Origin: Phorcus lineatus
Lineage: Eukaryota > Mollusca > Gastropoda > Trochida > Trochidae
DNA: 64,000 bases
Assembly (NCBI GenBank): GCA_921293015.1
Contig: OV121092.1
Location: forward strand, 9,678,001 to 9,742,000
Direction of reading: 5' to 3'
The translations under genes and the position numbers were made by a program. Positions 357 to 63,783 of the stretch are shown piece after piece. The notes under the pieces are model-generated. The model was not told the DNA's origin. It saw only the letters and a list, made by a program, of their open reading frames with translations, and did not search any database. The stretch's first letter is position 1; the number at the start of each line of letters is the position of its first letter.

Positions 357-25136
<24,780 letters not shown>

Positions 25137-32076: not shown

Positions 32077-35000
32077 ATGGATTATCCCAACACTATCTCT
32101 GCTCTGAAAGTTTTACAATACTCATTGTCATGCACGAAATGGTAATTCAATCTTCAATTCCCAACTTTGTTATGAAGTCAAAATAATTATATAGAGAAAG
32201 GTATTGTTTGATATCCTATTATTGGGCCATCTTCAATCTGATTTCCATTTTGATACCCTTATGTTTCGTGTTTCCGTGATGTTAAGAAATACACTTCTAT
32301 GAGCTCTAAAGCTAATAAAAGACAACCATCGTGAACTTACTAAAGTGATTGAGCACATATTTTCACATTATTTGATATCGAATAGTCATTTGTTTATTCT
32401 ATCGTAAATCTGGTTGACATTTTAAAACAGTTTCCCGTTGATACTAATTTATTTGGTGTCAACGTTGTTCATGTCATGGTATTCGTTATACGTCAAACCA
32501 TGACAATACAACACAGGCTATAGCTTTCACTTAAGTTTTACTGTTTTCGAAACACAGAAAACGTTGAAATTAATGTTGACATATTATTAATACATTTACA
32601 TGGTCATTTCCCAGCAGGCATCCAACATACCTTAATTCCAAGTTGAAATTTAGTTGATTTCAGGTCAGGACCTTGATCAACCAATTTTCAATGTCAGAAC
32701 AACCTTAGTTTCGTGACGTCAAAATCTTTTTGTTTTTTTGACATTGTTTCAACGTCATCAGTACAACATTATACAGACAAGTGATTACTTTAATTAATTA
32801 CATTTGATTATGATTAATAATAATTTACAAGTTAATAAAATACTAATGGATTGTTTTAAAAAATGAAACAAAAAAGCAAAAATGAAGAGTTAACATTGAC
32901 ATGTGATAAGGTTAATAATAGTGGCTTTAGATAAATAAACAATTAACATTCATGTCAATTTTGCAATAATGGGAGGTAACTGTCGTTAGATTTAATTAGA
33001 TTTAAGTACCATAGTATGTGGTATTTTTCATAGATATATATTTTTTCTTTTATCTTTAGAATGGAAAAGATAAATATTTGATTTGAATAATGTCATTAGT
33101 TTTTACAAAACTGATACTGTGCATTTGTAAGAAACATTTTTTGGTGACACTCTGCTCTAAAGTGTTGCAGTGTCATAAAAACATTATACCCTAACGGGAA
33201 AAGCAATTTCTGATTTTCAAACACACTAGATTTATCTCCTAATTATCAATGGATAACTTGTCACAGTTGTCTCCTATCTCCTTGATAAGGCTATGACTAA
33301 GAGCTGACGCATACAGCATCGACTCATACATAAGATGTTTGTATAGAACACATTATAAAAACAAATGCTATCTCAATCTGAACAATCCTGAACAAGACAA
33401 TAGTTAATCTGATGGCTTTTCAACGTTGATACAACGTTGTGGCTTTGATGTTGAACCAATGTCAAAATAATGTCAGATTTCAATGTTAAGGAAAATTTCA
33501 AATGATATCAAGATTCATCGTTATTTCAACGTCAATAAAAAAGATTGTTTCATCATTTCCATGTTGATACAGCGTCAAATTGGCTGTTGAGTTAGTTATT
33601 TATTGTCAAAAATATCTAACATGAAATGTCACATTTCTCGAAAAGTAAAGAAATCATTAATGATTAGGCTACTAATTAAGTGTATACATGGTATCACAAA
33701 ACATTCTAGCCACCAAATCACTTGCATAGCTAACGATTAAATATGAGCAATACAAGTAAAGTTTTAACTGTTCAAGCAATATCTTGCTTTCTTTGCAATC
33801 CTGAAAAATAGCCAAAAATATATATAGAATAGACTTACTATTTCACAGATTTAACAAAAGAACAGGGATTGTACCTTAAAGTCAATGATCAGGATAAGAA
33901 CACATGGGTTTATTTAAAAACATTATTTGAAAAAATTGTAGGGATTATTTATTGTAAAAAATCATCCATGAATGTTTTCCATAAATAGTGGAAAGCATGA
34001 AATTTCTTTGGATTTTCCTCACTGAAGTGAATCGTAAAATGAATGACAAGTGATCATTTTCTGCTTTTATTCACGCAAAACAACTTATTAATAAATGATA
34101 ATGACATGAGACATAAGCCTTAAGTGTTGTTGTCATCATGTTAAAATCTGCCAATGGCTCTTCTTTTTTTTAGCTAAGTCAGCACTGTAAAGGTAGATCT
34201 TTGCATTGACATTAAAACATTGTTTACCATCATGATGCATTTTAGAATTCAATCATAATTACTTCTCCCTTAAACATCAATAACAGACATCTTTTAAGAT
34301 CAAATTGCCTGTTGTGCAGCTTTATAGAAATAACCACATATATATATCAATTCATGGATGTTGTGTCTACATGGAAACCACATTATAAAAAAACAATTTC
34401 GTTGTCGGAACATTGTTTCTTGACGTTAAAATTGACTTTGAAAATTGATTACTTGACTTCCCCACCTTTTTGTCTACTAAAATTTCAAAGGTTAAAAGGT
34501 CACTGCTTTACTGCTGGACTAGTTTAGAATTCTGATCAATCTCACTTTTGATATTTCTATTTTCAGTCACACCTTACGTTCAACCTTATGTACTCTTGGT
34601 GGTTGTGAACATCTTTTCTGTCGGTAAGATATCCTGACTTTCAATTGACCATGGATACACCGATAGAAAATCTTAACTATGAAGGATCGGTATCAGCAAT
34701 GTCATATGTGACTGGATATGTCTTACTTTATCCTTCAATGTGGATGCTGATTTTTTAAATTTATATATGGTTGAATAACACTGTTCCATAAGACAAACAT
34801 GAGTTTGATATGACTCCCATGCAGAGGAACTTTTGCTTAACGAGCAGAACCAAAAGAATCATTCTTGTTGTCTCTTGATTAGTGTAGTTCTGTTTCTCTA
34901 ACTTTACAATAAGTACTTGACATGGTGTGCACCTATAGCACCTACAGATCATTCAGTGTGTTTTGATTTCCTTTGAGAGTTAAGGACCAAAGGAGTTGGG

Positions 35001-35516
35001 GCTCAGTAGGTACTGTAGTGTAACAGATGGGCTTTACATGCAGCAGTATAAAAGTTGCGGCTTTGAGTCTTCCTTTTGCCAAAACATTTTCAGATTAATG
35101 TAAGTTTTTGTTATTATTTTTCCAAATAGTAAGTCATTTCACACTCTAATTTTCACCATAAAGTTAACATCTCAGGGTTAAAAATATATACTTGAAGGCT
35201 TTGTTCTCGAGGTCCTCCTGCACAGGTGTTATGTGGGTTCCTTTCATCCAAGGCTGTGATGTTTTTTTTTTAAAATATATAGTAAGACTTTGCATTGTAA
35301 GTCAAGTTAATCCTTCTCCCTCCATTGACAGAGAGTGCTGCAGCTCCCTTGTTGGCACGAGCTGTCCTGAATGTCAGATCCCGGTTCACGTCAAAGATGC
35401 TCATGTGAACAAGCAACTCTCCAACCTGGTCAGTCTCTGTCAGGAGCTTGGCAGGATTCTTGTGTCTGGTAGTCATGGTGACGACAGAGAGGATCGACCA
35501 ATCAAGAATGCCACAG
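32077..35516 (+). CDS. BARD1: BARD1 exons 1-3: RING domain
   Basis: The N-terminus is short (human BARD1 has about 30 extra residues): MDYPNTISALKVLQYSLSCT. The RING ligands are C19, C22, C35, H37, C40, C43, C52 and C55; the third to sixth lie in GGCEHLFCREC and the last pair in CPEC. C22 is split across intron 1 (TG|T), which confirms the junction. The helix after the RING (VNKQLSNLVSLCQELGRIL) corresponds to the BRCA1-pairing helix. All eight zinc ligands are intact. Confidence 0.95.
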
Positions 35517-38500
35517 GTAGGCTTATGTTGTTCCTAGTGAAAATAGTTCAAAATTATCTTCCAACCTGACATGCACAATTGGTCAATTAGTGGTTTAGTT
35601 TTCTCCCCACAGGAACTAATGATGGCTGTAAATTTTAAACATGGTCAGAACCAAACTTTTTAATTGATTTTGAATTGATCAGTTGCTTTTAGTGTTATTC
35701 TTTGTATATTTTTTGTCTAATCCAGTTCAAGATATTGATGAACATCTGGGAGTATCAAACCTTCATCAGACATCAATTGCCAAAACGGATGTCAACAAAG
35801 CATTTGAGAGAACAAAGGAAACAGATCTCAAGGAAAACAAACATAAAAAACCTGTTTCCAAGGCAACCAGGTTGAGGCAATCTTTTGGAGATGAGACTGG
35901 TAAAGATGGAGGAATTGGTGACCTTGAACTTGATGCAGATGACACAAACATGGAAAGAACATTGCCACAAGAAGGGAAACGAGAAATAAGTGAACAAACA
36001 AAAACAAATAACAAAAAATTAAGTGAGGCAACTCAGATATCAAGGAAATCAGTCCGGAATTCAAAACTGTCTGAAAAAGAGGACAAAGGTGAAAAATTAA
36101 GCGAAAGCAAGGGAGATGACTCTGCAAGAAGAGGACGATCAAGAAGCAGATCCATCATTAGCCAAATATCCAAATTGCAAAATTGTACCTCAAATGGTGA
36201 GGAAGATTCAAGGGACGAAGAAAAGTCTGTGAAAAGAGGACGTAAATCCAAAACATTTGAAAAAACAATTGCTAGTGGAAGAAGAAGAAGTAGAAATAAA
36301 TCTGCTGACCAATCAACGATGACTCAGTTTTATGATTGCAGCGACGAGGAAAAAATGAGCGAGTCCCCAGATGAAGAAGAAAACACTTCCATGCCATCAA
36401 GGAGAGGTCGGAGAAACAGGGAAGGATCGAGACAAAGACTAAATAATTCTGGTAGAAGTAAAAAAAAGGAGACAGAAAAATCAGTCGACCAAAAAACTAT
36501 GACTCAGTTTTATGAATACGAGGACGATGAGGAAATGCCTCTTTTAGAAATGCCAGAAGAAACAAAAGATGAACCAGAAACATTGACAGTAGTCAAGAAA
36601 CGATCAGGAAAGATGCAGAGAAATAAATCTAAAGAAAAACAATCACAAGAGACAATAGAGACGGGCTCCAGTCAGAGGTCAAAGAAGAAGGGTCAAGGGT
36701 CAGTGAAGACGTCACCTGTATTCAGGTCGAGTCCCGTGAAGCGAGGAAGGCGGAGTCTTACTGGCAGCCAGGGGGAGCCACCAGTGAAAAGGAACGCACT
36801 TGGGGAAACACCCCTTCAAGTGGCAGCTATCAAGGTGAGGCTTTTATTGAATTTATTTTATTTTTTACTTCTAAACGACCAAACCAAAAGCAGGGGGGGA
36901 AAGCAGGGGTTGTTGTTTTCAGTTGATCAGCTAAGTTCCAACTTTTTGGGATACCTCTTTCTTTGTAAGTAAGCATTGAAGTGTTCATGGTCACTGACCT
37001 ATCATATTTTGCTTTTGACTTTCACAAAAGATAAGAAAAATAACATATGAAAGTGGCAAGACTTGTATTCCTTCTCCTGACTTGTAATACAGTGAAAAAC
37101 ATATCCCAAACATTTGGAATATCTGTCAATATTTAGAAAGGAGCTGCAACATTTTACTTTCACAATATCTTCTATGCTTTATCCTTTTAGTTGTGGTCAA
37201 TGAGTTTACGTTCCAAATTTGTGGTTGTTAAAGAGTTAAGATAAATTAATATCAATAATTTGATGTTTATTTGATTGGATGCAGAGTGAGCTAATTGTAG
37301 AATGTTATTCCCATTATTTTCCTCTTTGTTCTAACAGGGTGACTTGGAAAGAGTGAAAACATTGCTAGAGGCTGGAGCAAAACCCAACGTGAGAGACAAT
37401 GCTGGATGGACACCCCTGGTAAATATCATACCATCATTTCCCTGAGCATTGAAATTGAAGTGGGCTCCATCTGTCTGCCCTGACACTGTTTCCAGAGCAG
37501 AACTCTAAGCCTATAAGACCTAGCTTGATGACACTTGGATTGTGCATCAGGCGTTATGTGTAAAATGTGTCTCTTTGGGTTTTCAATTAAAATTTATTTT
37601 TTTTGATTGATTCTGTTGAAATGTAGCTTCGAGTTTTGCTTTGTTTTTATTGAAATCCTGGATCAGTTTATAAACATTGATTGAACATCATTCTGGCTAA
37701 AAATCCTCTTGGTCATTGTCAGGCACTTAGTGTTAAAGGGGTTGCCACTTTCTTGACAATCACACCTCTTGAAAAATTACTTAATGTATCATCAAATGTC
37801 TTCTTTTGTAGACTTAACTTTGGTTCGTAAAACTAAGTTTTAAGTTCAGGTTGCAATGATTTCAAGTAGGTTAACATTTCTTAAGTCGAGCCCCGTTGAG
37901 GTAATTCATATGAATGGTCCCTGATAAATTTTTAGCTTGTCCATATTAATAGATACCATTGTCTGTAACCATTCACTTTTTCCCTCAGCATGAGAGCTGT
38001 AACCATGGTTTCACGTCTATCGTGGAGCTACTACTGGACAATGGAGCTTTGATCAACGTGCCCGGCCCGGAGAATGATACACCCCTCCACGATGCTGTCT
38101 CCAACTATCGGCTTGAGGTTGTGAAACTGCTGGTGTCTCGGGGAGCGGCCATTAATGCAAGGTGGAAATTTGTCTTCATTAGACAGACAATTTTGAGTCT
38201 GATAAGAAAATATGGCCTAAGAGTAATTGAGGGGTCCGAATGTCTGAGTATCTTAAACAACTATAAAATGCAACCTAATCCTTGAAAATGGTTCAGATGA
38301 AGATATTCTGAAAGCTGAAATAGTTGACTGTAACATGGTGTATTCTTAAGAATCCTGGAGTTTAGTTGCAAAATGAAAAAGCATCGTGAAATCACATAAT
38401 TTTCGAGTTTGGTTGCAGTCCCCTATAGGCAACTGCAACCAAATTGTTTTTTGTCAAATATTCATCATTTTTCAAGTCTTGGCTAAAAAACATTTGCTTG

Positions 38501-41500
38501 CAGGCATTGAAATTATGTTTTGAAAAGCTTATCAGATCAATTTGGTTGCAGAAGACTTCAATTTTACCTAATTCGACTAGAAAACGATCAAATCAACAGT
38601 TTCATTTTGACATGTTCCCTTGGACACTATGTGTGATGTAATGCCATGTGGTACGTAACACGGCCTTCAATTGGCTAATTCAGTATAAAATATAATCAAT
38701 AAAATTTTAACGTTCCTTTTTACTTATTTATGATTGATTTTGATCCGTTTTCAGAAAAAGTAGTCATTAAATTAACTTTCTAATGTTTATTTTCAATCAA
38801 AATTTGTTTGCTATCAGAGGTATCTGTTACAGCCAATGAGAATTGTGTTGAGATTTGACAACAATTAGAATTTGTCTCAAAGGCCACGTTGTAGACTCAA
38901 ATGGAATTTTGGGAATAATTTGATCAAAGAATGTCATAAATACTAGCCAAGACATGCTATAAGGTAGAATATGTCAAGATTAATCAAGGTTAGTGGAAAA
39001 TGTCCATCTTTTGTGAAAGAAAAGACAGCAAAGCGGGACATGACATGATCGAAAACCGGACTCGGTTGCTTTCAGCAAGTTGCCGATGTTTCTTTAAAAT
39101 TATGAATATAAATCTAGGTAAGGCTGCAACATTTGCGATATCATCATATATTTTCTCTCTGCAAACAAATTATGTTTAGTTGCATTTTACAGTCATTTTA
39201 GAGGCCCCTTCATCCCCTTAATTACTCTTAGGCCAAAAATATAAGTAATATATTCCTTGATTTCAAAGTGCACTAATAGTATGAAATCGAGGAGTGGATT
39301 GCTAATAATTTCTTGTGTTTGAATAGTAGTTGTGTCAGCTTTTCAATAGTGCATTCATGATTGAAATTCCAACTTACGTCCATTTTTTAAGTGGCTTTTT
39401 CATTTACAGTATGAACCCTTCCTGCCTCTAGACATTTCATCCTGAAAACAAATACCAGTTCACAAGCAACACTGTTGTGATAGCTTGTGATATGAGGCTT
39501 TAGATTTCTTTACTCGAGAGTGTTGGTGAACTTTGAATACAATGTCGAAAGATGCTCTATTTTCCTTTTGCAGGAACATCCATGGTAGAACTCCAAAAGA
39601 TTTGGCAACAACAGAGGAAATGCGTCAAATCTTGGAATCTGGTGACACTAAACAAATGGACATTGCTGACATCACAGAGGTTGGTTTATACATGCAAAGA
39701 TAACTCTCCTTTGGATCTGTTGTCTTGAAATTTTTTTAAAACTTTGTTCTTCCATCGCCTTAAAAAACAATCTTTAAAAGTATAAATGTGTTGCATACAT
39801 GATGGAAACTGCCAAAGAATGTTCAACAGTCTTAGTTGAACAATCTTGTTCTTCATATTTTACCACATTACCTCATACAAAACAACAAAAATTTTGCAAC
39901 AAAATTAAGGAAGTGAAAAACACCAAAATGATTTATGAAAATGGGTTACATTCCAGATTGGGTTGGACGATGAATACACCCCACTATGCTTCCTTAGAAC
40001 CGCCCTGCCGCGGGAAGAAGGACGCAAACTACAGAAATGTGCCTCAGTTCTGCAGGCTAAACTTGTTGATACATTTTCTGCTGATGGTAAGATTATTGTG
40101 CTGCTTGTGAAAAAGTTCCCTGACACAAAGTGGTGATAATGTTTTAGCTTTGTCAATGAATGATGTGTCGTTCTGTCAAAGTTAAAGAGGACAGCTTTTC
40201 TCAGAAAGATAGGATAGGAAAACTTTGATGTATTCTGAAAAGTGTGGATTTTTTTTTTACAATTATTACCATTGCTCCTTTTTTTAAAACTCTGTTCTAA
40301 AAATCTGCCAAGGGGCACAGCTTTTCTCAGAAACCATGTAAAAATTGAAGACCAAATTTTGTGTCTGTCTTCAGGGTAGAATATACTCCTTAAAGCCTTT
40401 ATTCTATGATATCAATAAAGAAAATATATTGATTATATGCTGACTAGTAAATCGCCAAAAAAATTCCAATACAATATATTGAATAACTTGAAATCTAAAA
40501 TCAACGAAATCTGGTCTAAATTGCAGTGTCCCATGTTGTGACCTCAACCAACAACCAGGGGCAGTGTCCACGCACCTTGAAGTACCTGCACGCTGTTCTG
40601 GCTGGCAAGTGGGTTGTCTCCCTTGAATGTAAGTGTTTATGGTAATGGCTGTTGTGGTAGATTGCTAACAGGGCTGCCTAATGTATGATTTTGGAGTAAT
40701 GACAGTTCTTTCATATGATCCTACACCAGTGACACAAATTATGCATCCTCACTGAGGAATAAATATCTTAATTTCATCTCATTATTTATTTATAATGGAG
40801 AACTAAGCTGTTACCAAGTTCAATTTCAAACAGCTGAACATCAGACAAGAGCAAATGGCTGAATTTATTTGGTTATTTGAAGTGTCATGCTGTAGCACAG
40901 CTTTTCACATTCATACCATCAACTAATAGATTTATTTCTTAAAATGATGATTGTTTTTAAGTGAATGCAGGCTATTTATTTTTTTAAATTTTACAATTTA
41001 ATGTAATCCCCAAAATAATCCCTTAGCAAAATGTTAAAGCGAATTTTGTAATGACCGTGTATGAATGACAAAAATACATAAATAAATGAAATATTCTCTC
41101 AAATTTCATTTCCACAAAAAGTAACCCTGAGAGAACCCTCAATTAAATCCAAACCCTATTATCTTACATTATCTTCCTCCCAGGGGTGGACATGTGTTTG
41201 GAGTACAAGCAGAAGGTGTGTGAGGAAGCGTTCGAGGTTCCTGGCTCCAGCACCAACCCAGACACACACGCTGCTATGAAGGGGAGGCTCAACAGGAGAC
41301 AACAGGTACTTGATGTCATCCCTGTGATTGAGTTACTATTTTTAGCTTATCTGGCCTGAAAGCCCCGATGGGCGCATGGCATGGCTTCCGACATCCGTCT
41401 ATCCGTAAACTTTTGACTATTTCATCTTCTTCTCCAAAACAATTGACTCAGGAAATCTGAAAATTTATGTACAGACTCCTTGACACAAATGAACAGGTAA

Positions 41501-42056
41501 AAAGTTATGCAGATGATGCTGTGTTCTTTTAAGCTCTTCATTATTTTCATGACTCTGATTTTACTATTAGTACAAATACAAAAAAATTATTCAAAGCATT
41601 TTCTCAACAGAATCTTTTGTGTATTCATAGCACTATTACACGCTTTCTCTTCTATCCTTCTCAAATTTCAAAGGCCCTTTTGATATTGTTACTCATTATT
41701 TAATAATTCTTCAATTTCACTGTACTTTTTCTTTCCAGCTCCCAGGGTTGTTCGATGGCTGCCAGTTTTATTTCCATGGAACTTTCCAAAACCCAGAGAA
41801 GGAAGAACTACAGAGTTTGGTGAAGGACGGCGGCGGGACACTTCTCTCTCGTGAACCCAAGATTCACAACCTGGACGACTACACTCACACTGTCCCCTAC
41901 CATGCCACCAGTACCAGCAAACTGAAGGATTGTGGCCTGTACATCATCCATGATAAAACAATGGCCTACCCCTCAGTAAACTCTACAAGACTGTGCGCTG
42001 TACCCTCAAACTGGATCATGGAATGTATTGCTACTTTCTCTTTGGTTGACCTTTAA
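32077..42056 (+). CDS. BARD1: BARD1, BRCA1-associated RING domain protein 1, complete, 11 exons
   Basis: Obligate RING partner of BRCA1. By family knowledge the heterodimer ubiquitylates H2A, reads unmodified H4K20 through BARD1 ankyrin repeats and H2AK15ub through its BRCTs, and promotes homologous recombination. Exons: 32077-32141, 34567-34623, 35332-35516, 35726-36834, 37338-37418, 37989-38161, 39574-39679, 39957-40086, 40527-40628, 41184-41305, 41739-42056. All junctions are GT-AG and in phase; total 2448 nt, 815 aa (human 777), with 11 exons as in human. The start is supported by an in-frame TGA (32065-32067) four codons upstream. Order: RING (19-55), basic/acidic disordered linker (about 85-455), ankyrin repeats (about 460-590), two BRCTs to the C-terminus. 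AATAAA follows the stop by 80 nt. Confidence 0.97.
32615..33600. repeat. Possible DNA transposon with long imperfect inverted arms
   Basis: Within BARD1 intron 1, 32615-32765 and, inverted, 33415-33595 are both rich in CAACGTC/GTTGA/CAATGTC motifs, with arms of about 150 bp. The match is loose and was judged by eye only. Confidence 0.3.
34985..35070 (+). repeat. tRNA-derived SINE-like segment
   Basis: GGGGCTCAGTAGGT fits a Pol III A box and GCGGCTTTGAGTC about 55 bp on resembles a decayed B box. It lies in BARD1 intron 2. Confidence 0.4.
35726..36834 (+). CDS. BARD1: BARD1 exon 4: disordered linker with twin PIP-box motifs
   Basis: Residues about 103-472, Lys/Arg/Glu/Ser-rich, with several RGR and SRSRS basic patches. 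Two near-identical segments 180 bp apart read DQSTMTQFYD (36307-36336) and DQKTMTQFYE (36487-36516). Each fits the PCNA-interacting-peptide consensus Q-x-x-[LMI]-x-x-[FY]-[FY] and each is followed by an acidic run. The exon ends at GETPLQVAAIK, the start of the first ankyrin repeat. Confidence 0.95.
37338..39679 (+). CDS. BARD1: BARD1 exons 5-7: ankyrin repeat domain
   Basis: Exons 37338-37418, 37989-38161 and 39574-39679. Reads GDLERVKTLLEAGAKPNVRD, NAGWTPLHESCNHGF, NDTPLHDAVSNYRLEVVKLL, NIHGRTPKDL. D492, E501, N504 and D534 sit where human D458, E467, N470 and D500 contact the H4 tail around unmodified K20, so the reader pocket looks intact. Introns 5 and 6 hold no gene; intron 6 has a 12-bp-arm hairpin at 38408-38443. 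Confidence 0.94.
39957..42056 (+). CDS. BARD1: BARD1 exons 8-11: tandem BRCT domains
   Basis: BRCT1 runs from exon 8 (IGLDDEYTPLCFLRTALPRE) through exons 9 and 10 (VSHVVTSTNNQGQ, LAGKWVVSLE, WVDMCLEYKQKVCEE). BRCT2 is exon 11, starting LPGLFDGCQFYFHGTFQNPE and ending VPSNWIMECIATFSLVDL then TAA. The conserved BRCT tryptophans (GKWVVSLEW and SNWIMEC) are present. Intron 10 (41306-41738) contains an inverted fragment of the array-type element. Confidence 0.95.
41343..41490 (-). repeat. Inverted terminal fragment of the array-type element
   Basis: Reading on the minus strand gives the same tail as 21080-21216: gaagaagatg, TTTACGGAT, GGATG, GCCATGC, CGGGGCTTTCAGGCC, then a degenerate CTGATGAGCTA. 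It lies in BARD1 intron 10, opposite in orientation to the HECW copies. Confidence 0.7.
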
Positions 42057-62200: not shown

Positions 62201-62551
62201 TCATCCGTGGTGACCCTTTCCTCCTTTACCCCCGTGGCCCTTTCCACCATGTCCTTTGCCTCCACCGTGACCTTTGCCTCCACCACGTCCTTTTCCTCCA
62301 CCACGACCTTTTCCCCCTCCACGGCCCTTGCCTCCTCCTCCTCTTCCGCCGTGTCCAGCCATGGTAGTCCCAAATACGGCAGCAAGAACTGTAAGAGAAA
62401 TTTCATGAGTAAGTGAAAATGAGTAAAATCGTTGAGATATTGTTGTACAAATCAAAATGTCATATACACATCTGATAAAAGAAAATTGGACCCAAACATG
62501 TCCAATACACAAACCTGCTAAAACAAGGAGGGTGATGGTGAAAATCTGCAT
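62201..62551 (-). CDS. Secreted glycine-rich cationic peptide, 74 aa, two exons
   Basis: Exon 1 62515-62551 and exon 2 62201-62388 join in phase (G|TT, Val). Residues 1-23 (MQIFTITLLVLAVLAAVFGT, then TMA) form a typical signal peptide with likely cleavage after Ala23. The mature 51 residues consist only of Gly, Lys, Arg and His, as repeats of GGGKGR changing to GGKGH and ending KGHHG. No Cys, Tyr or aromatic residues. Such composition occurs in glycine-rich antimicrobial peptides and in shell, byssus or mucus matrix proteins; the sequence alone does not decide. The His-rich end could bind metal. The gene has its own TATA box and poly(A) signal. The intron falls inside the signal peptide, as in many secreted effectors. 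Confidence 0.8.
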   Translation of the reverse strand: MQIFTITLLVLAGLCIGHVWVQFSFIRCVYDILICTTISQRFYSFSLTHEISLTVLAAVFGTTMAGHGGRGGGGKGRGGGKGRGGGKGRGGGKGHGGGKGHGGKGHGGKGGKGHHG

Positions 62552-62610
62552 ATTGATGTCTGTTCCTTGCTTCTGGTAGAATGCAATGAAAGAGTCGGAG
62601 TTGACTTTGT

Positions 62611-62618
62611 CTTTTATA
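62611..62618 (-). promoter_or_regulatory. TATA box of the glycine-rich peptide gene
   Basis: TATAAAAG on the minus strand, about 60 nt before the ATG, which leaves a short 5' UTR of about 30 nt. A strong TATA box suits a highly or tissue-specifically expressed gene. Confidence 0.65.
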
Positions 62619-63783
62619 GAAATCTCTCAGCATGAAAGATATGGCAATAACCTGTGGCACACCTCTATCATAGCGATTATGACTTCATATGGAGATATAT
62701 CTTAATCACTGCACTTTTTCCAAAATGCAGCGTTCTTCTTTTTCAGACATGATGTTTCCTAATTAAATGACTCCATGCTGTGATCTCACTTGAGTCCAGA
62801 CAGAATGTCTTTCATCATTCTTACGCTAGAAACACTCACATTGGTCATTGAGGCCATGGAGTAGGGGTATTATCTTTTCGTTTAAGTGTTTAAAGTTACA
62901 GAATATTTCTTTCCAAGTTTAGCCAAACTATTAACAAAAAAACGTATGTCAAAACTAAATATTACAATCGATTTCTGATTTCAAACTGTCAAATTTCTTT
63001 TCAGGTCAATGTCAGGTGCCAGTTGATAGTATGGACATGACACTGATACTTTTTGACAAATCAAAGAGTACACAAACTTTGTAAAATCACTATGGTCATA
63101 TGACTTCCGCACCTTTTTTTAACACATCATTTATGGTTTTCTAATTGTAAATTAACAGGGGCTCGTTTTGTTTTATTAGCGCCAAATGCGTCACCATCTA
63201 TCAAAGTAAAGAGCGTCTGATGTAGGTTTCTTGATGAAATGCTAGGAATAGATTGATAAATGCATGCTTTGTTTAGGAATTCTACTGCAGATATAATGTT
63301 CAATGTCCTTGTATTATAAAGGGTTAGGAATGGATTGGTTGTTTGTGAAATGGGCTTGGTAAGGTCAAAGTAGACTTCTTGAAGAACTTTAATACTGCCT
63401 TGCTAGTCCAAGTTAAACAGGACTTTTACATACAGACCACATGTTAGTTTTCATTATTTGTCATTTCACCATTTGAGTGTGACTCATTAATCACTTTGGC
63501 TGTGATTGTTCAAGACTGAAGGGAAACGTGGCTTTGCTAGTTTCTTTACAACCACAGACAGACCACTGACGCAACACAGGAAGATTTGGCACGAATGCGA
63601 AGCCAGTGTGACGTCACCTCAAATATTGCAATTTCCTTGTTGCATATTTTTTTCTTCAACAAACCGTCTTTATTTAGTAACACTTATCATGGTCGACAAA
63701 GGCTGTATTTTAATGAGCAACGTATTTGATTTTGACTCTTTTAGCATACGCGGCACATTACTGAAGTAGTTGAAAAGTATGCA
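62619..63783. other. Intergenic, nothing recognised
   Basis: AT-rich with no convincing coding segment or RNA gene on either strand. Confidence 0.4.

What the first reader, a model, noticed from the sequence alone, without database searches (positions are those of the whole stretch)
36307..36516. Two p21-type PIP boxes in the BARD1 linker
Seen: QSTMTQFY (residues 298-305) and QKTMTQFY (358-365), exactly 180 bp apart, each preceded by Asp and followed by an acidic run. Known: the PCNA-interacting peptide consensus is Q-x-x-[LMI]-x-x-[FY]-[FY], and M-T-x-F-Y is the core of the high-affinity p21 peptide. Inference: this BARD1 may tether BRCA1-BARD1 to PCNA at replication forks. I do not recall such a motif in vertebrate BARD1. 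Repetition within an otherwise unconserved linker argues for selection.
Basis: partly seen in the sequence, partly recalled or inferred. Interest (0 to 1): 0.78.

Follow-up and report, generated by a model that had tools for sequence, protein, structure and literature searches.

The report
PCNA-clamp-like motif in mollusc BARD1
A DNA-repair protein of a sea snail carries, twice, a short peptide that looks like the tag proteins use to hold on to the replication clamp; abalones, a limpet and many bivalves carry it too, but it also looks like a damage-kinase switch and its acidic surroundings argue against tight clamp binding.

Summary
QSTMTQFY (36310-36333) and QKTMTQFY (36490-36513) are residues 298-305 and 358-365 of an 815-residue, 11-exon BARD1. 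Two copies arose in 0 of 200,000 linker shuffles. The motif is the most conserved 8-column stretch of the linker over 37 mollusc BARD1 rows, window included. An extended PIP pattern is met in 20 of 38 mollusc rows and 0 of 33 other rows; a chiton and two whelks match only a looser one. Cephalopod, heterobranch and some oyster rows lack it.

The PCNA reading is only partly supported. The four PIP anchors are among the best-conserved columns, the linker is predicted disordered, and the snail's own PCNA has the standard pocket. But 21 of 21 extended copies carry an acidic C-flank, and one paper says negative flanks likely prevent PCNA binding. "High-affinity p21-type" is unjustified.

I favour a weak, possibly bivalent PCNA tether switched by such a kinase (0.5) over a purely phospho-dependent docking site (0.3). 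No binding was tested.

The parts
32077..42056 (+). BARD1 gene, 11 exons: 32077-32141, 34567-34623, 35332-35516, 35726-36834, 37338-37418, 37989-38161, 39574-39679, 39957-40086, 40527-40628, 41184-41305, 41739-42056; 815 residues
   Evidence: GT-AG junctions and one open frame; Pfam zf-RING_6, Ank, BRCT; best homologues are annotated BARD1 of Haliotis
35726..36834 (+). exon 4: RING-to-ankyrin linker, predicted disordered
   Evidence: (AlphaFold2, low pLDDT)
36310..36333 (+). motif copy 1, QSTMTQFY, residues 298-305, followed by acidic DCSDEEK
36490..36513 (+). motif copy 2, QKTMTQFY, residues 358-365, followed by acidic EYEDDEE; shares with Haliotis the following [LM]PLL[ED]M
36322..36327 (+). 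TQ (positions 5-6) of copy 1, a PIKK-type [S/T]Q site; the same in copy 2 at 36502-36507
   Evidence: sequence; kinase motif as given in PMC4666095
36298..36357 (+). first unit of the 60-nt direct repeat (second unit 36478-36537, 77% identical)

Best explanation
The two octamers are copies of an old molluscan linear motif in the disordered RING-to-ankyrin linker of BARD1, with majority form P-x-D-Q-[STKR]-T-[ML]-[TS]-Q-[FYH]-[FY]-D-Y followed by acidic residues. It most likely works as a PIP-type peptide that docks in the PCNA pocket and helps hold BRCA1-BARD1 at replicating DNA. Each copy is expected to be weak because of its acidic flank; in this species two copies 52 residues apart could occupy two protomers of one PCNA ring and gain by avidity. 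The [S/T]Q inside the box would let an ATM/ATR-type kinase phosphorylate position 5 and release the clamp, and perhaps create a phospho-site for a BRCT or FHA reader. Shown: the sequence, its conservation, predicted disorder of the linker, the pocket in the snail's own PCNA. Inferred: binding, bivalency, phosphorylation and switching.
For: Highest of 257 eight-column windows in the linker over 37 mollusc rows, window included: 2.29, against mean 0.90 and sd 0.18 for windows not touching it. Column scores of the four PIP anchors: Q1 2.99, position 8 2.70, M4 2.38, position 7 2.28; Q6 scores 2.60. Q1 is the highest in the motif and no rival explains it. Strict consensus in 16 of 38 and extended in 20 of 38 mollusc rows. 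Linker predicted disordered, where most PIP boxes lie (PMC6881253). The own genome has a 261-residue PCNA, E 1.6e-126 to 1axc_A, with M40, H44, V45, L47, I128, P234, Y250 to I255 and K164 in place. Among the 29 copies in the 23 rows examined, [S/T]Q stands at positions 5-6 in 28 and T at position 3 in 29, positions the search pattern did not ask for. Phosphorylation at position 2 of the p21 box is reported to modulate PCNA binding strongly (passage of PMC6881253). Human BRCA1/BARD1 is reported to ubiquitinate PCNA, K164 in a section title (PMC11106271, abstract and section titles). On the flank objection: PMC6881253 also found no such charge correlation in affinities collected from the literature.
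Against: Acidic C-flank: net -3 or lower over 7 residues in 21 of 21 extended copies, against 6.7% of 7-mers in the same rows' linkers; charge per residue over both flanks -0.14 to -0.57, negative in 21 of 21. PMC6881253 says that motifs with negative flanks likely do not bind PCNA, and the PCNA residues it names as contacts of p21's basic C-flank (D29, D122, E124) are present in this snail's PCNA. The acidic flank is conserved, as if the true partner liked it. T3 and Q6 are more constrained than a PIP box needs. 18 of 38 mollusc rows fail the extended consensus, and 8 of 29 copies have L, M or V at position 7. The whelk copies and Littorina's were found by pattern and were not placed in the motif column by the alignment. 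A profile of 19 motifs found no PCNA-bound peptide among PDB sequences, nor did a 22-residue query, though such short queries have little power. No complex could be modelled.
Confidence: 0.5

Rival explanations
1. Not a clamp tag. The core is [ML]-[S/T]-Q-x-[FYW] with an acidic tail: a PIKK (ATM/ATR) phosphorylation site whose phosphorylated form, p[S/T]-Q-x-[F/Y], is read by a BRCT pair or an FHA domain. BARD1 would then act as a damage-induced scaffold, as MDC1 does with its TQXF repeats.
For: [S/T]Q in 28 of 29 copies; S for T in 3 of 21 extended copies (two Mytilus rows, Pinctada), an exchange a kinase site tolerates. Acidic flank in 21 of 21 extended copies. Degenerate copies keep TQ while losing PIP anchors: Mya QTSTTQFY, C. 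virginica QTRRTQLL, Batillaria QNVLTQFR (aligned at the motif), Littorina EATLTQLC (found by pattern). MDC1 carries four ATM-phosphorylated TQXF motifs that recruit RNF8 and, by that paper, Pellino E3 ligases (passages of PMC11884936).
Against: Does not explain Q1, the best-conserved motif column, nor T3. Position 7 is F, Y or H in all extended copies, but the pattern asked for that, so it counts little. FHA domains bind phospho-Thr, so the three Ser copies argue against an FHA reader. The list of degenerate copies is biased, since looked for [LMIV][TS][QHN].
Confidence: 0.3
2. A docking peptide for another surface that likes acidic-aromatic segments (for example RPA70N, TFIIH p62 PH, or LC8, which reads TQ cores); the PIP likeness is a coincidence.
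For: The acidic-hydrophobic stretch after the motif in the window and Haliotis (EEMPLLEMPEET, EELPLLDM) resembles such ligands in composition; the TQ core resembles LC8 ligands (both recalled, no call).
Against: Four PIP anchors coincide; that tail is not shared by the bivalve rows read; the residue after TQ is F, Y, H, L, M or V, not the T or V usual for LC8 (recalled).
Confidence: 0.13
3. No present function: a neutral leftover or a recent local repeat.
For: 60-nt direct repeat in the window; 18 of 38 mollusc rows fail the extended pattern.
Against: Conserved far above the rest of the linker across gastropods and bivalves; chance shuffles.
Confidence: 0.03

Closest known systems
p21 PIP box (144-QTSMTDFYHS-153, as printed in PMC4666095)
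   Same: Q1, M4, T5, F7, Y8 at identical spacing; disordered context
   Different: Q instead of D at position 6; acidic instead of basic flanks; twice in one protein; no PIP degron
MSH6 and UNG2 PIP boxes (QSTLYSFF, QKTLYSFF; PMC6881253)
   Same: Q-[SK]-T-hydrophobic-x-x-F-aromatic, with the same S/K choice at position 2 as the two window copies; reported KD 3 and 34 uM show what a canonical box without p21's flanks can do
   Different: no [S/T]Q, no acidic C-flank
DNMT1 PIP box (QTTITSHF, recalled)
   Same: HF at positions 7-8 as in the four scallop rows QSTMTQHF
   Different: basic flank (recalled); different protein
MDC1 TQXF repeats (PMC11884936, passages)
   Same: repeated [T]Q-x-[F] in a damage-response protein
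   Different: S in place of T in 3 of 21 extended copies; Q1 and M/L4 in the BARD1 motif; Y at +3 in the window
Vertebrate BARD1 linker
   Same: disordered RING-to-ankyrin linker; a DNA-binding interface is reported there (passage of PMC10639053)
   Different: no PIP-type motif in 6 of 6 vertebrate rows

Membership tests
BARD1 | BARD1-type RING, ankyrin repeats, tandem BRCT in one protein | tested here: met
   PF14835 2.2e-11, Ank_2 5.4e-36, BRCT 5e-14 (2 stretches) and BRCT_2 4.9e-12; groups with Haliotis BARD1
PIP box | Q-x-x-[LMI]-x-x-[FY]-[FY] | tested here: met
   both window copies; strict in 16 of 38 mollusc rows, extended in 20 of 38
PIP box | lies in a disordered region | tested here: met
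   Haliotis asinina linker 89-428 nearly all under pLDDT 50; window exon 4 mean pLDDT 51, no helix or strand at either motif
PIP box | non-negative flanks (affinity rule of PMC6881253, not part of the classical definition) | tested here: not met
   charge per residue over both flanks -0.14 and -0.57 in the window, negative in 21 of 21 extended copies
PIP box | a PCNA with the receiving pocket in the same organism | tested here: met
PIP box | physical binding to PCNA through the motif | not testable with these tools
   needs peptide binding or a complex structure
PIP degron (CRL4-Cdt2) | [ST]-D at 5-6 and K/R four residues after the aromatics | tested here: not met
   T-Q at 5-6 and acidic residues after it in both copies; pattern as in PMC4666095
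PIKK (ATM/ATR) site | [S/T]Q | tested here: met
   28 of 29 copies; phosphorylation itself not tested
TQXF (RNF8/Pellino FHA ligand) | phospho-Thr, Q, F at +3 | tested here: inconclusive
   T and Q fit in 18 of 21 extended copies; +3 is Y in the window, F in others; Ser at the acceptor in 3 of 21; phosphorylation not testable

The most novel reading that the evidence does not exclude
Molluscan BARD1 carries a two-state peptide: unmodified it is a PCNA tag that keeps BRCA1-BARD1 on the replication clamp (bivalently in this snail); once ATM or ATR phosphorylates the threonine or serine buried in the tag, it lets go of PCNA and becomes a ligand for a BRCT or FHA reader. The acidic flank would keep the clamp-bound state weak so that phosphorylation can flip it. 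Vertebrates, which read replicated chromatin through BARD1's ankyrin and BRCT domains, showed no such peptide in the six rows examined.
Probability: 0.22. Interest if true: 0.78.

Novelty: new variant of a known kind. Interest (0 to 1): 0.56.

Why it matters
How BRCA1-BARD1 is kept at replication forks is not fully settled. In human cells BARD1 reads H4K20me0 and H2AK15ub (passages of PMC10639053), and BRCA1/BARD1 is reported to ubiquitinate PCNA (abstract of PMC11106271); a phrase search of that paper's main text found 'PIP' only in 'pipet' and no 'APIM'. A clade in which BARD1 may carry its own clamp tag would be a natural comparison, and the embedded kinase site makes a sharp, cheap test possible. 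If it proves not to bind PCNA, it is a clear natural example of a perfect PIP consensus that is something else, which matters for motif prediction.

Tried and rejected
Rejected: a plain 180-bp tandem duplication (only about 60 nt repeat). Rejected: CRL4-Cdt2 PIP degron (no D at 6, no basic residue after). Corrected on the way: my note took position 5 for p21 T145; PMC4666095 shows T145 is position 2. Led nowhere: phmmer of 70- and 22-residue pieces against PDB sequences (0 hits); motif profile against PDB (one hit, Sso2, E 1.3, not meaningful). First regex searches for exon 1 did not find it; tblastn did. Whether the two-copy state (window, 3 Haliotis, 2 Mytilus rows, spacing 50-60 residues) is ancestral to gastropods and bivalves or arose separately could not be decided on 20 residues. 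No row of the three protein searches is named as annelid or brachiopod, so whether the motif is older than molluscs is open. DNA of relatives was not fetched, so there is no codon-level test. Literature on a BARD1 PIP box: 10 of 10 listed; 30 of 129 listed; 2 of 2; mollusc BARD1, 1 of 1; nothing in titles or abstract starts reports one; of those papers I opened only PMC11106271 and PMC7719709. on phosphorylated PIP boxes gave 1, 3 and 0 papers.

Full report
What is there. The window holds a BARD1 gene on the plus strand, 11 exons from 32077 to 42056, with GT-AG junctions and one open frame of 815 residues. Pfam on the product without exon 1 finds the BARD1-type RING, ankyrin repeats and BRCT domains. 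The window lies in a 958-Mb assembly of 74 contigs. A tree of ankyrin-BRCT regions has 38 rows: 34 of the 37 aligned mollusc rows, window included, and 4 deuterostomes; three short rows were dropped (Saccostrea cucullata, Mizuhopecten, Crassostrea virginica X4). It puts the window with three Haliotis at 99/98, so the animal is most likely a vetigastropod-like snail. The finding's two octamers are residues 298-305 and 358-365, as stated. A search of the assembly with a 100-residue piece around them reported only this place at E <= 10 (11 candidates scored).

More than chance. Two copies of the strict PIP pattern arose in 0 of 200,000 shuffles of the linker; one or more arose in 210.

Conservation. 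Three protein searches returned 125 distinct proteins (P0002-P0126). I used 70: 37 classed as mollusc BARD1 and 33 as other BARD1. I set aside 55: other ankyrin-repeat proteins, plant BRCA1-like proteins and one fungal hit. Ten of the 33 others carry no name and were taken as non-mollusc. With the window, the strict pattern Q..[LMI]..[FY][FY] is in 16 of 38 mollusc rows, the extended one (V at 4, H at 7, W at 8 allowed) in 20 of 38, and a looser one in 24 of 38, of which the Octopus match is false since it lies outside any linker; 0 of 33 others match any of the three. Rows with the extended motif are Haliotis (3), Patella, the window, and 15 bivalve rows: Potamilus, Sinanodonta, Pecten, an unnamed scallop, Mizuhopecten, Ylistrum, Mercenaria, Mactra, Ruditapes, Saccostrea (2), Mytilus (2), Pinctada and Dreissena. 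Looser forms only: chiton Liolophura QTTMTQLF, Nucella QTTLTQMF, Babylonia QTTLTQVW. Degenerate and aligned at the motif: Mya QTSTTQFY, C. virginica QTRRTQLL, Batillaria QNVLTQFR. Littorina EATLTQLC was found by pattern and was not placed there by the alignment; nor were the Nucella and Babylonia copies. Not found: three cephalopod rows with linkers, four heterobranch rows (Candidula, Bradybaena, Lymnaea, Elysia), Gigantopelta, Magallana gigas. Some absences may be gene-model errors. In a MAFFT alignment of 37 mollusc rows (window included, Octopus left out), the motif is the highest of 257 eight-column windows in the linker: 2.29, against mean 0.90, sd 0.18 and best 1.51 for windows not touching it. 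The chiton's form suggests that the motif predates the split of chitons from other molluscs, by inference from recalled phylogeny.

Two copies. By the looser pattern six of 38 rows have two copies, 50-60 residues apart: the window, Haliotis (3) and Mytilus (2). Only the window has two copies that meet the strict pattern. The second window copy shares its tail ([LM]PLL[ED]M) with Haliotis's main copy. The two window copies share 15 identical nucleotides over MTQFY, which may reflect local gene conversion; not tested.

What the letters say. One search took the 23 rows with a looser match (the Octopus row left out). Over their 29 copies (21 extended, 8 looser), position 3 is T in 29, and positions 5-6 are [S/T]Q in 28; the exception is H. 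rubra's upstream TH. My patterns did not ask for these positions. [S/T]Q is the PIKK phosphorylation site (PMC4666095). In the alignment of 37 rows the best-conserved motif columns are Q1, position 8, Q6, M4 and position 7. So the motif is a PIP consensus with a kinase site inside it.

The flank problem. In 21 of 21 extended copies the seven residues after the box carry a net charge of -3 or less, against 6.7% of 7-mers in the same rows' linkers; charge per residue over both flanks runs from -0.14 to -0.57. I read the Results section of PMC6881253 as held, its Table 2 rows missing, and passages of its discussion. It traces p21's affinity to basic flanks, shows the p21 box spanning four orders of magnitude with flank charge, and says that motifs with negative flanks likely do not bind PCNA. 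It also says that affinities collected from the literature did not show the same pattern, so the rule is not absolute. The snail's own PCNA, assembled from the genome, is 261 residues with the standard pocket and with D29, D122 and E124, the acidic contacts named in that paper. A weak or avidity-dependent tether remains possible: the 52 residues between the copies span roughly 58 A as a random coil by a recalled scaling law, similar to the distance between pockets on a PCNA ring (recalled).

Structure. AlphaFold2 for Haliotis asinina BARD1 gives confident ankyrin and BRCT domains, a fairly confident RING, and pLDDT below 50 over nearly all of residues 89-428. The window's exon 4 alone is likewise unstructured at both motifs. 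No complex could be modelled.

Literature. PMC11106271 (abstract and section titles; phrase search) reports that human BRCA1/BARD1 ubiquitinates PCNA. PMC10639053 (passages) describes BARD1 reading H4K20me0 and H2AK15ub and a disordered DNA-binding region between RING and ankyrin domains. PMC7719709 (passages) reports BARD1 at damaged forks. PMC11884936 (passages) describes TQXF motifs. Searches for a BARD1 PIP box and for mollusc BARD1 listed no paper whose title or abstract start reports one; one search listed 30 of 129, and subscription journals are mostly outside that library.

Judgement. The motif is real, old and constrained. That it is a PIP-type PCNA tag is the best single reading, because Q1 together with both aromatics is hard to explain otherwise, but the conserved acidic flank is a serious and specific objection. 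The embedded [S/T]Q makes a phospho-docking rival credible and a combined two-state model the most interesting reading. Peptide binding would decide.

Noticed in passing
window 19695-21108: Minisatellite: 9.8 copies of a 145-bp unit, 92% matches.
   Followed up: no
window 16240-16623 and 12070-14040, minus strand: Open frame with a weak C2 match just under Pfam's cut-off (20.5 against 22 bits) and, about 2 kb away, a 657-residue proline-rich frame without Pfam match at E 0.01; perhaps exons of one neighbouring gene, identity not tested.
   Followed up: partly
window 62204-62626, minus strand: Frame rich in Gly, Lys and His (GGKGHGG units) with only a sub-threshold Pfam match.
   Followed up: no
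window 36319-36333 and 36499-36513: The two motif copies use identical codons for MTQFY although synonymous choices exist, hinting at local gene conversion between the copies.
   Followed up: no
P0018 177-184 and P0019 177-184 (Mytilus): An upstream second copy, QRTMTQML, keeps TQ but lacks the aromatics, and sits in a basic-then-acidic context like the main copies.
   Followed up: partly
mollusc BARD1 linkers, just before the motif: Several rows have basic residues and S-[LV]-P-x-D directly before Q (RKSLPID, RRSLPVD, RKSVPID), so the motif has basic-to-acidic polarity; possible NLS or DNA contact, not tested.
   Followed up: no
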